The notes below the pieces were generated by a model, which made no database searches, was not told the DNA's origin, and saw nothing but the letters and a program-made list of their open reading frames with translations. From Halorussus marinus (GTDB lineage: Archaea; Halobacteriota; Halobacteria; Halobacteriales; Haladaptataceae): a DNA stretch of 64,000 nucleotides. The position numbers and the translations under genes were made by a program. This document shows positions 60,406 through 64,000 of the stretch, piece by piece (positions within the stretch are counted from its first letter, which is position 1; every line of letters starts with the position of its first letter). The stretch is taken from NCBI RefSeq assembly GCF_004765795.1, contig NZ_SBIV01000003.1:186001-250000 (forward strand). The letters are read 5' to 3'.

Positions 60406-60548
60406 CGGCGTCGCGGCTCTCTCGTCTCCCGACGCGAACGACCTCGTCGTCGGCCCGCCGCGATCGACCGCTCGCCAATACGTTCGTCTCTTTTCATCTG
60501 ACCTCAGTTTTCGTGGCTTTTATGCTTGCTAGCCGGTGATTCTGCAAT
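60406..60548. other. Promoter region of the KaiC-like cluster
   Basis: 143 bp without a gene. The last 60 bases turn AT-rich and hold the TATA element at 60517-60524 upstream of the ATG at 60549. I see no clear operator repeat. Confidence 0.5.
60517..60524 (+). promoter_or_regulatory. TATA box of the KaiC-like gene
   Basis: CTTTTATG, 25-32 nt before the ATG at 60549. Confidence 0.6.
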
Positions 60549-62033
60549 ATGACCTCCTCAGACCGTCAGTTCACGCGGATCTCGAGCGGGATCTCCGGGC
60601 TCGATACGCTCCTCCGCGGCGGGTTCGTCAACGGTCGGTTGTACCTCGTCATCGGGCCGCCCGGGGCCGGCAAGACCCTCCTCGGGACCCAGTTTCTCGA
60701 AGCGGGCCTCGACGCGGGCGAGACGGTCCTGTTCATCCACGGCGAGGAGTCGGCCGACGACCTCCGGGCCAACACCGCCGAACTCGGCATCGACCTCGAC
60801 GACGCCGCGTTCCTCGACGTCGGGCCCGAGTCGGACTTTTTCACTCGGGCCCAGTCGTACGACGTGGTCAAGCCCCGCGACGTCGAGGACGGCCATCTGA
60901 TCGCCGACATCAGAGACTCGATCGAAGCGGTCGACCCCGACCGCGTTCTGATCGACCCGATAACCCACTTCCAGTACCTCGAACCGACCGAGTACCAGTT
61001 CCGAAAGCGCATCATCTCGTTCGCGCGCTTCCTCAAAAACCGGGGGACGACCGTGCTGGCGACCAAGACGCCGACCGAGCAGATGGACACCCAGCTCAAG
61101 TCGCTCAGCGACGGCGTCATCACCCTCAACCACGGCGACGAGAAGGCCGGCCGACGGATCCGCGTGCCGAAACACCGCGGGGTCGGCCAGCGCGATGGGT
61201 CCCACGGGATGGAGATCCGCGAGGGCGGGGTCGAGGTCTTCCCCGCGCTCGTGCCCGAAACGCACAGTCGGCGGTTCGAACCGACCAAGTTTTCCTCGGG
61301 CATCGACGGGCTCGACGCCCTCCTCGACGGCGGGCTCGAACGCGGCACGGTCACGATCCTCAGCGGTCCCTCGGGGGTCGGCAAGTCGACGACGGCCGCG
61401 GAGTTCCTGTCGACGGCCGCCCAGCACGGGGACCCGGCGCTCGCGTACCTGTTCGGGGAGTCGATCGAGACGTTCACTCACCGGGCCGAGCACTTTGGCA
61501 ACCCGGTCTCGGACCTCCACGAGGAGGGGTCGCTTTTGATCGAGGAGATCGACTCGCTCGCGATGTCGCCCGAGGAGTTCGCCAATCAGGTCCGCACGCA
61601 GGTCGAACGCCACGCGGCCGAACTCGTCGTCATCGACGGCATCGCCGGCTACAAGAACGCGATCAAGGGCGGGGAAGACGGCGTGGAACTGCGCCGCCGG
61701 CTCCGGGCGCTCACAAAGTACCTGATCCAGATGAACGCGTCGGTGATTCTGATCGACCAGCGCAGGGAGGTGACGGGGTTCCCCGAACCGACCAGCGAGA
61801 GCGTCAGCTATCTCGCCGACAACATCGTCTTCGAGAACTACATCGAGGTCGGCGGCGAGCTCCAGCGGATCGTCGGGGTGCTGAAAAAGCGCATCGGGGG
61901 CTTCGAGACGGTCCCGCGCCGGTTCAGGATCACCGACGACGGGCTCCAGATCGGCGAGTCGGTCTCGGGGATGCACGGGGTCGTCGAAGGCGTGCCCAAA
62001 CGCGTCGGTGGTGATCCCGATCAGTCGCTCTGA
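60549..62033 (+). CDS. Double-domain KaiC-like RecA ATPase
   Basis: 494 aa with two RecA/KaiC domains. Walker A of CI is GPPGAGKT (Lys42), with catalytic Glu pair in HGEESAD (67-68). Walker A of CII is GPSGVGKST (Lys279), but the catalytic position there has only one Glu (FGESIETF). The C-terminal RIVGVLKKRIGGFETVPRRF and GLQIGES match the KaiC C-terminal region. It lacks clear Ser-Thr phosphorylation sites like those of cyanobacterial KaiC. Such haloarchaeal proteins (including CirA-D and GvpD relatives) are regulatory ATPases. It opens an apparent operon with two histidine kinases (15 nt then an 8-nt overlap). Confidence 0.9.
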   Translation: MTSSDRQFTRISSGISGLDTLLRGGFVNGRLYLVIGPPGAGKTLLGTQFLEAGLDAGETVLFIHGEESADDLRANTAELGIDLDDAAFLDVGPESDFFTRAQSYDVVKPRDVEDGHLIADIRDSIEAVDPDRVLIDPITHFQYLEPTEYQFRKRIISFARFLKNRGTTVLATKTPTEQMDTQLKSLSDGVITLNHGDEKAGRRIRVPKHRGVGQRDGSHGMEIREGGVEVFPALVPETHSRRFEPTKFSSGIDGLDALLDGGLERGTVTILSGPSGVGKSTTAAEFLSTAAQHGDPALAYLFGESIETFTHRAEHFGNPVSDLHEEGSLLIEEIDSLAMSPEEFANQVRTQVERHAAELVVIDGIAGYKNAIKGGEDGVELRRRLRALTKYLIQMNASVILIDQRREVTGFPEPTSESVSYLADNIVFENYIEVGGELQRIVGVLKKRIGGFETVPRRFRITDDGLQIGESVSGMHGVVEGVPKRVGGDPDQSL

Positions 62034-62047
62034 GACATCCGATAGCA

Positions 62048-63154
62048 ATGACCGAGATCCAACTGCTGTTGTCCGCCGACGGCAACCGCCGGGCGCTGGC
62101 GTCGGTCGTGGACGAACACTACGATCCGATCGTCGACGAGGAGCTCCGGGACGCGGATCTGTATCTCGTCGACGAGCCGTCGTTTCACCGCTACCGCGAC
62201 GCGCTGGATCGACGCAGACGCGAGACCAGAACGGTGTTCTGTCCGGTGGTGTTGCTCCGTCGCGACCGGACGCCGGTGACCGTCGACCTCCCCGACCCGG
62301 TCGAGTCCGAGTCGCCGCTCCTCGTCAACGAGGTGCTGGACGCGCCGGTCGGGAAACAGACGCTCTTTCGAACGGTCGAGAACCTCCTCGCGAGGCAGGC
62401 CCGGAGCGAGCACATCGCGGCGGAACTCGACGCCGCGACCGCCAAACTCCGCGAGCGAAACGACCAGCTCGAAGCCCAGCGCGACGACCTCGGGCTGTTG
62501 AACCAGATGTTGCGCCACGACATCCGCAACGACCTACAGCTCGTCACCGCCTACGGCGACCTGCTCGAAGCCCACGTCGACGAGGCGGGGCGCGAACACC
62601 TCCGAACGGTCCTCGACAGCGCCGACCACGCGGTCGAGCTCACCGAGACGGCGCGGGAGATGGCCGACGTGATGCTCTCGACCGAGGAGGCCGAACCGGA
62701 GCGAATCGCGCTTCGCGGGACGCTCGACCTCGAACTCGAACGAGTCCGCTCGGAGTACCCGGACGCGACCGTCGCCGTCGAGGGGACCGTCCCGGGGGTC
62801 ACCGTCGTCGCCGACGACATGCTCGACTCGGTGTTTCGAAACCTGCTCAAAAACGCCATCCAACACAACGACGGGCCGGCCCCGAACGTGACCGTCTCGG
62901 TCCGCGAGCGTGCGGGCGAGGTCGCGGTCCGAATCGCGGACGACGGCCCCGGCGTCCCCGACGAGCAGAAAGACGAGATCTTCGGGAGACGGGCGACCGG
63001 TCTGGAGAGCGACGGGACGGGCATCGGGCTCTATCTGGTCCGGACGCTGGTCGAATCGTACGGCGGCGACGTGTGGGTCGAGGACAACGACCCCGAAGGC
63101 GCGGTGTTCGTCGTGACGCTCCCGACGGTCGAGGAGGCTCGGTCTGATGGCTGA
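62048..63154 (+). CDS. Histidine kinase with receiver-like N-terminal domain
   Basis: 368 aa, no membrane segment. Residues 1-118 look like a degenerate receiver: Asp42 sits in LYLVDEPSF at the phosphoacceptor place, but the acidic pair near residue 8-10 is LSAD rather than DD and the conserved Lys after PV is absent (APVGKQTLF). A short coiled coil (ERNDQLEAQRDDL) leads to the H-box LNQMLRHDIRNDLQ with His157. N-box RNLLKNAIQHND, G1 ADDGPGVPDEQ and G2 GTGIGLYLVRTL complete the ATPase. The gene starts 14 nt after the KaiC-like gene and overlaps the next kinase by 8 nt. Target unknown. Confidence 0.9.
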   Translation: MTEIQLLLSADGNRRALASVVDEHYDPIVDEELRDADLYLVDEPSFHRYRDALDRRRRETRTVFCPVVLLRRDRTPVTVDLPDPVESESPLLVNEVLDAPVGKQTLFRTVENLLARQARSEHIAAELDAATAKLRERNDQLEAQRDDLGLLNQMLRHDIRNDLQLVTAYGDLLEAHVDEAGREHLRTVLDSADHAVELTETAREMADVMLSTEEAEPERIALRGTLDLELERVRSEYPDATVAVEGTVPGVTVVADDMLDSVFRNLLKNAIQHNDGPAPNVTVSVRERAGEVAVRIADDGPGVPDEQKDEIFGRRATGLESDGTGIGLYLVRTLVESYGGDVWVEDNDPEGAVFVVTLPTVEEARSDG

Positions 63155-64000
63155 GATCCAACTGCTGGTCGACGGCTCGGGCAACCGCCGCGCCCTTACC
63201 TCGATTCTGGACGACAACCACACTCCGGTCGTCGACGAGGAGTTGCGCGAGGTCGATCTGTATCTCGTCGACGAGCCGTCGTTTCACCGATACAGCGACG
63301 CGCTAGAGCGCCGCAAAAGAGAGCTCGATCCGGTGTTCTGTCCGGTCGTCCTCGTGCGCCGGGACCAGACGCCGGTCACGGTCGACCTCCCGGACGTCGA
63401 GACCGCCGAGCGCCCGCTGGTCGTCGACGACGTCGTGACCGCCCCCGTCGAACCGGCGTCGCTGTTCCGGACCATCTCGAACCTCCTCGCGCGTCGCAAC
63501 CAGACCGCCGAACTCCACGCCGACCTCCGGGCGCAAAACGACGAGCTCCGGCAGTTCAAGAACGCGGTCGAGCACGCCGGTCACGCGATCCTCATCACCG
63601 ATCCCGACGGGGTCATCGAGTACGTCAACCCGGCCTTCGAGCGGATGACCGGCTACGCCGCCGCCGAGGTCATCGGCGAAAACCCCCGGATCCTCAAATC
63701 CGGCGAGCAGGACGAGTCGCTGTACCGGGAGCTGTGGCACACCATCCGGGACGGCGACATCTGGACCGGCGAACTGGTCAACGAGCGCAAATCCGGCGAG
63801 CGGTTCGTGATCAATCAGACGATCGCGCCGATCGCGGACGCCGACGGGGAGATTCAGGCGTTCGTCGGGATTCAAGACGACATCACCGCGCACAAACTGC
63901 GCGAGCAACAGCTCACGGTGTTCCACCGCATACTCAGACACAACCTCCGGAACAAAGGGACGGTCATCAACGGGTACGCCGCCGAACTCGAGGCGTCTCT
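63147..64000 (+). CDS. Histidine kinase with receiver-like and PAS domains (cut by window end)
   Basis: At least 284 aa; the 3' end is outside the window. Residues 1-118 are strongly similar to the first 118 of the preceding kinase (IQLL..GNRRAL, VDEEL, DLYLVDEPSFHRY, VFCPVVL, TPVTVDLP), again with Asp42 but no acidic pair or conserved Lys. Residues about 135-250 form a PAS domain (VEHAGHAILITDPDGVIEYVNPAFERMTGY, then ERKSGERFVINQTIAPI and GIQDDITAHK). The H-box FHRILRHNLRNKGTVI has His265. A full ATPase domain is expected beyond 64000. ATG at 63147 overlaps the preceding stop by 8 nt, so it is cotranslated with the KaiC-kinase operon. Confidence 0.88.
   Translation, partial: MAEIQLLVDGSGNRRALTSILDDNHTPVVDEELREVDLYLVDEPSFHRYSDALERRKRELDPVFCPVVLVRRDQTPVTVDLPDVETAERPLVVDDVVTAPVEPASLFRTISNLLARRNQTAELHADLRAQNDELRQFKNAVEHAGHAILITDPDGVIEYVNPAFERMTGYAAAEVIGENPRILKSGEQDESLYRELWHTIRDGDIWTGELVNERKSGERFVINQTIAPIADADGEIQAFVGIQDDITAHKLREQQLTVFHRILRHNLRNKGTVINGYAAELEAS

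What the first reader, a model, noticed from the sequence alone, without database searches (positions are those of the whole stretch)
60549..64000. KaiC-like ATPase in one transcription unit with two histidine kinases
The KaiC homologue is followed by two kinases at +14 nt and -8 nt spacing. In cyanobacteria KaiC signals through a separate kinase (SasA); here the partners appear encoded together. The CII domain lacks one of the catalytic Glu residues and cyanobacterial phosphosites, while the CI domain looks intact, so the ATPase may act as a switch rather than a phosphorylating clock. No KaiA or KaiB is present.
Basis: partly seen in the sequence, partly recalled or inferred. Interest (0 to 1): 0.6.

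Follow-up and report, generated by a model that had tools for sequence, protein, structure and literature searches.

The report
Haloarchaeal KaiC with dedicated pseudo-receiver kinases
A relative of the cyanobacterial clock protein KaiC sits, in salt-loving archaea, beside sensor kinases that carry their own degenerate "receiver" domain, and that domain has evolved in step with KaiC while the rest of the kinase was swapped, which points to the long-missing signalling partner of archaeal KaiC.

Summary
Confirmed: a two-domain KaiC (60549-62033), a histidine kinase 14 nt later (62048-63154) and a second kinase overlapping it by 8 nt (63147 to 64550, ending outside the window). KaiA and KaiB are absent from the whole genome. 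The motif reading is half right: the CII glutamate is lost (G303), but only here. A Ser and a Thr sit at the S431 and T426 positions; only T432 is replaced, by Tyr.

The gene order is conserved. Of 76 haloarchaeal KaiC loci chosen by KaiC similarity alone, 69 have a kinase carrying the same ~120-residue N-terminal domain directly downstream on the same strand. Three have it divergently, and three have a stand-alone receiver-like gene instead. Triples recur in at least eight genomes.

That N-terminal domain is a degenerate receiver (pseudo-receiver), not the KaiB-like domain of SasA, and is nearly confined to KaiC neighbours. Its divergence tracks KaiC (r = 0.75) while the kinase core on the same polypeptide does not (r = 0.30). 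In the window the two kinases share the pseudo-receiver (62%) but not the core (29%).

Best reading: KaiC docks dedicated kinases through the pseudo-receiver, and signals out through response regulators (REC-HalX at several loci). New variant of a known kind; no evidence for a clock.

The parts
60518..60523 (+). TATA-like element TTTTAT about 28 nt upstream of the kaiC ATG, as expected of a leaderless haloarchaeal transcript
   Evidence: read from sequence; a consensus match only, not a mapped promoter
60549..62033 (+). two-domain KaiC-family ATPase, 494 aa
60582..61247 (+). CI RecA-like domain (aa 12-233); catalytic pair E66-E67 intact
61287..61952 (+). CII RecA-like domain (about aa 247-468); E318 equivalent is G303, E319 is E304; T415, S420, Y421 at the T426, S431, T432 positions
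62048..63154 (+). histidine kinase 1 (368 aa): pseudo-receiver, DHp with His157, HATPase_c; no PAS
62048..62407 (+). pseudo-receiver domain of kinase 1 (aa 1-120)
63147..64000 (+). histidine kinase 2 (467 aa; runs on to window coordinate 64550 outside the window): pseudo-receiver, PAS, DHp with His265, HATPase_c
63147..63506 (+). pseudo-receiver domain of kinase 2 (aa 1-120), 62% identical to that of kinase 1
63543..63914 (+). PAS domain of kinase 2 (about aa 133-256); no LOV cysteine motif

Best explanation
The unit is a KaiC signalling module: a two-ring KaiC-type ATPase plus two histidine kinases that each carry an N-terminal pseudo-receiver. The pseudo-receiver is proposed to be the docking module that ties the kinase to its own KaiC. 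The nucleotide and/or phosphorylation state of KaiC would set the activity of the docked kinase, and the PAS domain of kinase 2 would add a second input. The kinases would then pass phosphate to a response regulator encoded elsewhere (REC-HalX is the likely type, because it sits next to KaiC in several relatives). Shown here: the genes, their order, its conservation, the receiver ancestry of the domain, and its co-divergence with KaiC. Inferred: physical docking, direction of signalling, identity of the response regulator. Kinase 1 looks like a mosaic: the local KaiC-matched pseudo-receiver on a kinase core of another lineage, so one KaiC may serve two outputs.
For: Gene order: 69 of 76 KaiC-selected loci have a pseudo-receiver kinase directly downstream on the same strand, 3 divergently, 3 a stand-alone receiver-like ORF, 1 nothing. 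Specificity: in 30 genomes 23 of 28 hits of the domain lie directly downstream of KaiC and 1 divergently beside it; all 18 genomes with two-domain KaiC have the domain, only 2 of 12 without do. Receiver ancestry: PDB profile hits are receivers (best E 1.7e-5); hhalign to receivers of this genome probability 92%, E 5.5e-7. Co-divergence: KaiC vs pseudo-receiver r = 0.75, KaiC vs kinase core r = 0.30, 30 dereplicated loci, bootstrap difference 0.29-0.59 (0.75 vs 0.30 with HMM-cut cores). Window mosaic: pseudo-receivers 62% identical, cores 29%; both pseudo-receivers fall in the clade that matches the window's KaiC, the kinase 1 core falls elsewhere. REC-HalX type regulators directly upstream of KaiC.
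Against: No structure or binding data: the AlphaFold model of the domain was poor (pLDDT 46), so the fold rests on profile similarity. No response regulator is adjacent in the window. Four of 28 domain copies in 30 genomes are not beside KaiC. Co-divergence shows linkage, not contact. Most loci were chosen as best matches to the window's KaiC, so the survey leans towards close relatives.
Confidence: 0.6

Rival explanations
1. Signal runs the other way: the kinases (or their pseudo-receivers) are inputs that regulate KaiC ATPase activity, much as the KaiA and CikA pseudo-receivers act on the Kai oscillator, and KaiC itself is the effector acting on other targets.
For: Some KaiC loci have a stand-alone receiver-like ORF and no kinase directly downstream (L076 twice, L121), so the receiver-like part can be enough. 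PAS domains, including LOV-motif ones, are sensory. CikA PsR binds KaiB and quinone binding to the KaiA PsR affects KaiC stimulation (PMC12632262).
Against: Nearly all partners keep full kinase cores, and those cores are swapped, which suits variable outputs. REC-HalX type regulators beside KaiC in several loci suggest output through phosphotransfer.
Confidence: 0.25
2. The genes are co-transcribed for convenience (one regulon) without physical interaction; the shared N-terminal domain senses something else.
For: No direct interaction evidence; overlapping genes alone suggest only co-transcription.
Against: The domain is nearly restricted to KaiC neighbours and co-diverges with KaiC far better than the kinase core on the same polypeptide does; a kinase core was replaced while the KaiC-matched domain was kept.
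Confidence: 0.1
3. It is a cyanobacterial-type circadian oscillator.
For: Two-domain KaiC with intact CI pair; Ser and Thr kept at the S431 and T426 positions; cir genes of Haloferax respond to light-dark cycles (PMC3941300).
Against: No KaiA or KaiB in the genome; no KaiA-binding C-terminal tail; T432 replaced by Tyr; CII E318 lost in this genome.
Confidence: 0.03

Closest known systems
Haloferax volcanii CirC (two-domain KaiC homologue) next to a FixL-type kinase
   Same: Two-domain haloarchaeal KaiC with an adjacent sensor kinase (PMC3941300)
   Different: Described there only as a neighbour; no pseudo-receiver, conservation or co-evolution noted in the passages read. Orthology to the window's KaiC was not tested here.
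Rhodopseudomonas/Rhodobacter kaiC-kaiB-PAS/histidine kinase operon
   Same: KaiC encoded with a PAS histidine kinase in a probable single transcription unit (PMC4794148)
   Different: Has KaiB; bacterial. The domain make-up of that kinase beyond PAS was not examined here.
Cyanobacterial SasA (KaiC output kinase)
   Same: Histidine kinase with an N-terminal domain proposed to read KaiC; the best NCBIfam hit of the kinase 1 core is PRK09303, which I recall as the SasA family, far below its cut-off
   Different: SasA binds through a KaiB-like thioredoxin fold; here the N-domain is receiver-like (hhalign to KaiB probability 0.2%, to receivers 92%)
Pseudo-receivers of CikA and KaiA
   Same: Degenerate receiver domains acting in a Kai system (PMC12632262)
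   Different: In CikA the domain binds KaiB, absent here; recalled as C-terminal in CikA and N-terminal in KaiA, which is not a kinase. Here it is at the N-terminus of a kinase encoded beside KaiC
KaiC-like ATPases as archaeal signalling hubs (Makarova, Galperin, Koonin 2017)
   Same: General proposal that archaeal KaiC-family proteins are hubs linked to signalling domains (cited in PMC5847659)
   Different: The paper itself was not held, so whether it already lists this gene pair or domain could not be checked

Membership tests
KaiC family, two-domain (double RecA-like) ATPase | two tandem RecA-like domains aligned over the full length of cyanobacterial KaiC | tested here: met
   PF06745 twice; alignment over residues 5-490 to KaiC structures
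KaiC family, two-domain (double RecA-like) ATPase | Walker A and B and catalytic Glu pair in CI | tested here: met
   K42, E66-E67, D136 present
KaiC clock autokinase (cyanobacterial type) | catalytic Glu pair E318/E319 in CII | tested here: not met
   G303-E304; private to this genome, relatives have E or D
KaiC clock autokinase (cyanobacterial type) | dual phosphosites S431 and T432 | tested here: not met
   S420 present, T432 replaced by Y421
KaiABC circadian clock | KaiA and KaiB present | tested here: not met
   no PF07688 or PF07689 match at E <= 1 in the whole genome
KaiABC circadian clock | self-sustained rhythm | not testable with these tools
   needs experiment
SasA-type KaiC output kinase | N-terminal KaiB-like (thioredoxin-fold) domain | tested here: not met
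   hhalign to KaiB: probability 0.2%, E 0.3
SasA-type KaiC output kinase | direct binding to KaiC | not testable with these tools
   indirect support only: co-divergence and synteny
Pseudo-receiver (PsR) domain | sequence relation to receiver domains | tested here: met
   PDB receivers, best E 1.7e-5; hhalign probability 92%, E 5.5e-7; no Pfam receiver hit for single sequences
Pseudo-receiver (PsR) domain | loss of residues needed for phosphotransfer | tested here: met
   the Lys position is Ala in 62 of 88 and not Lys in the counts shown; the Thr/Ser position is mostly Arg or Gln; the Asp position is kept in 77 of 88
Pseudo-receiver (PsR) domain | receiver fold in three dimensions | tested here: inconclusive
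   AlphaFold model with 8 sequences, mean pLDDT 46

The most novel reading that the evidence does not exclude
Haloarchaea run a KaiB-free, KaiA-free KaiC timer or energy-state switch whose read-out is a family of pseudo-receiver histidine kinases, some of them with blue-light (LOV) domains, each matched to its own KaiC through the pseudo-receiver: a separate evolutionary solution to the KaiC output problem solved by SasA in cyanobacteria.
Probability: 0.15. Interest if true: 0.85.

Novelty: new variant of a known kind. Interest (0 to 1): 0.55.

Why it matters
KaiC homologues are widespread in archaea, but how they signal is unknown: a survey concluded that the cyanobacterial output route (SasA, RpaA) is missing in archaea and that outputs must differ (PMC5520375). 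A review of pseudo-receivers knows of no published functional study of an archaeal one (PMC12632262). This module joins both gaps and names the partner, the candidate docking domain and a candidate response regulator class, all testable in genetically tractable haloarchaea.

Tried and rejected
Structure prediction of the N-domain from the eight sequences allowed: pLDDT 46, so no fold search was run on it. KaiB/SasA-like fold for the N-domain: rejected. Lost CII glutamate as a family trait: rejected. 'Triple is unique to this genome': rejected. Simple tandem duplication of a whole kinase to make the triple: rejected, cores only 29% identical against 62% for the pseudo-receivers. Single ancestral triple: not supported, since N-domains of the window's pair are only 15-31% identical to those of the other triples while the first-kinase cores of five of them group with kinase 1. 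Makarova et al. 2017 could not be read. An early extraction of N-domains picked wrong domain hits in some proteins and was redone. One Pfam call failed on wrong coordinates and was redone with letters.

Full report
What is there. The three genes are as described: a 494-aa two-domain KaiC homologue (60549-62033), a 368-aa histidine kinase starting 14 nt after its stop (62048-63154), and a second kinase starting 8 nt before the end of the first (63147). The window cuts the second kinase; in the genome it is 467 aa long and ends at C3:250550, followed by a convergent gene, so the unit has three genes. Upstream lie a phosphomannomutase and a small protein that by its N-terminus I read as a Tat-exported lipoprotein. 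A TATA-like TTTTAT about 28 nt before the kaiC ATG fits a leaderless start, but is only a consensus match. The genome probably belongs to Halorussus: another genome of the same genus (G273) matches Halorussus halophilus records in contig lengths and coordinates (inference).

Residues. Against Thermosynechococcus KaiC the CI catalytic pair is intact (E66-E67). In CII, E318 is Gly303 and E319 is Glu304. T426 and S431 correspond to Thr415 and Ser420; T432 is Tyr421. The protein ends where the KaiA-binding tail of KaiC would begin. In 87 relatives the CII E318 position is Glu (73) or Asp (13) and Gly only in the window; Ser at the S431 position is kept in 84, Thr at the T426 position in 82, and Tyr at the T432 position in 80. 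The lost glutamate is therefore private, and the family is not devoid of phosphorylatable residues. No KaiA or KaiB is found in the genome at E <= 1.

Conservation of gene order. Two-domain KaiC matches below E 1e-30 occur in 187 of 292 Halobacteria genomes searched. I took 76 KaiC genes from loci chosen by KaiC similarity alone (L012, L049-L121). In 69 a kinase with the same N-terminal domain follows directly on the same strand; in 3 it is divergent and adjacent; of the other 4, three have a stand-alone receiver-like ORF directly downstream (L121 with PF00072 at 4e-11, the first of L076 at 2e-4, the second of L076 with only a weak profile score) and one has nothing (three duplicate loci were counted through their refetched copies). 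With about 30 kinases in the genome, chance would give about 1%. Two such kinases in a row occur in the window and in seven further loci (L123, L124, L131-L135). An annotated example of KaiC followed by two sensor kinases is on a Haloferax larsenii plasmid.

The shared N-terminal domain. About 120 residues, no Pfam receiver hit for single members. A profile finds receiver domains in the PDB (best E 1.7e-5; PleD about 2e-4), and hhalign against true receivers of this genome gives 92% probability, E 5.5e-7, against 0.2% for KaiB. The Asp position is mostly kept (77 of 88), but the Lys and Thr/Ser positions are replaced: a pseudo-receiver. An AlphaFold attempt with the few sequences allowed failed (pLDDT 46), so the fold is inferred.

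Specificity and co-divergence. In 30 genomes the domain profile gave 28 hits: 23 directly downstream of KaiC, 1 divergent beside it, 4 elsewhere. All 18 genomes with two-domain KaiC have the domain; 2 of 12 without do (hypergeometric about 2e-6 by my arithmetic, not corrected for relatedness). Outside Halobacteria, in the same phylum, four further copies also lie beside KaiC-family genes (L142-L145). Across 30 dereplicated one-to-one pairs, KaiC distance correlates with pseudo-receiver distance at r = 0.75 and with kinase-core distance at 0.30; the difference is 0.29-0.59 by bootstrap, and the pseudo-receiver correlates with its own core only at 0.31. Cutting cores by HMM gives the same (0.75, 0.30, 0.27). 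Shared descent alone would raise both values; the contrast indicates that the pseudo-receiver is matched to KaiC while cores are exchanged.

The two kinases of the window. Their pseudo-receivers are 62% identical, their cores 29%. Both pseudo-receivers fall in the clade whose KaiC proteins are nearest the window's (support 0.95), and the kinase 2 core groups with the single kinases of the Haloarcula-type loci (support 0.98), while the kinase 1 core groups with the first kinases of five other triples and with two single kinases (L085, L060) (0.87). Kinase 1 is thus a mosaic: a KaiC-matched pseudo-receiver on a foreign core. The pseudo-receivers of other triples are 15-31% identical to the window's, so triples probably arose more than once.

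How it may work. Shown: the linkage, the domain and its matched evolution. Inferred: the pseudo-receiver docks the kinase on KaiC; KaiC state sets kinase activity; phosphate goes to a response regulator. Receiver proteins lie directly upstream of KaiC on the same strand in several loci (L062, L119, L130, L135, L140 and larger ones); the one tested is REC-HalX, the other four look alike by eye, and the window genome has a similar receiver at C5:184540. The opposite direction (kinase or pseudo-receiver acting on KaiC) remains a serious rival, as with the KaiA and CikA pseudo-receivers.

Compared with what is known. Kinases encoded with KaiC are not new (PMC4794148; H. volcanii cirC beside fixL, PMC3941300), and archaeal KaiC proteins have been proposed as signalling hubs (Makarova 2017, not readable here). 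I found no description of the pseudo-receiver, its near-restriction to KaiC partners, or its matched evolution in the papers searched. It is not a SasA (wrong N-domain) and not a KaiABC clock (no KaiA or KaiB, altered CII). Verdict: a real, conserved module; new variant of a known kind.

Noticed in passing
L059, L061, L062, L066, L070, L071, L077, L078, L079, L082, L131 (partner kinases): Eleven of 88 KaiC-partner kinases carry the LOV photocysteine motif (G-x-NCRFLQ type), a blue-light sensor signature, directly linking a light-sensing domain with a KaiC partner; the window's own kinase 2 PAS lacks it.
   Followed up: partly
L062, L119, L130, L135, L140: Response regulators lie directly upstream of KaiC on the same strand (one confirmed as REC-HalX, the rest alike by eye), giving RR-KaiC-kinase cassettes; the window genome has a similar receiver elsewhere (C5:184540).
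   Followed up: partly
L076:6088-6597, L076:12361-12801, L121:6034-6498: KaiC genes without a pseudo-receiver kinase are followed by stand-alone receiver-like ORFs.
   Followed up: partly
L142, L143: In genomes of the same phylum outside Halobacteria, a single-domain KaiC-like ORF is directly followed by an ORF carrying the same pseudo-receiver.
   Followed up: no
L108 (G273:C2:189623-191044), L159: The closest same-genus KaiC (61% identical, on a Halorussus halophilus plasmid) is interrupted by an in-frame stop and not annotated as a gene, while its partner kinase is intact.
   Followed up: no
L157 (Haloarcula pelagica plasmid): A KaiC and PAS-protein cluster lies directly beside a methyl-accepting chemotaxis protein and CheW.
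   Followed up: no
window 60549-62033: Patchy presence: three of five other same-genus genomes lack a close two-domain KaiC, while the nearest relatives (75-78%) are in Haloarcula, suggesting horizontal transfer of the module.
   Followed up: no
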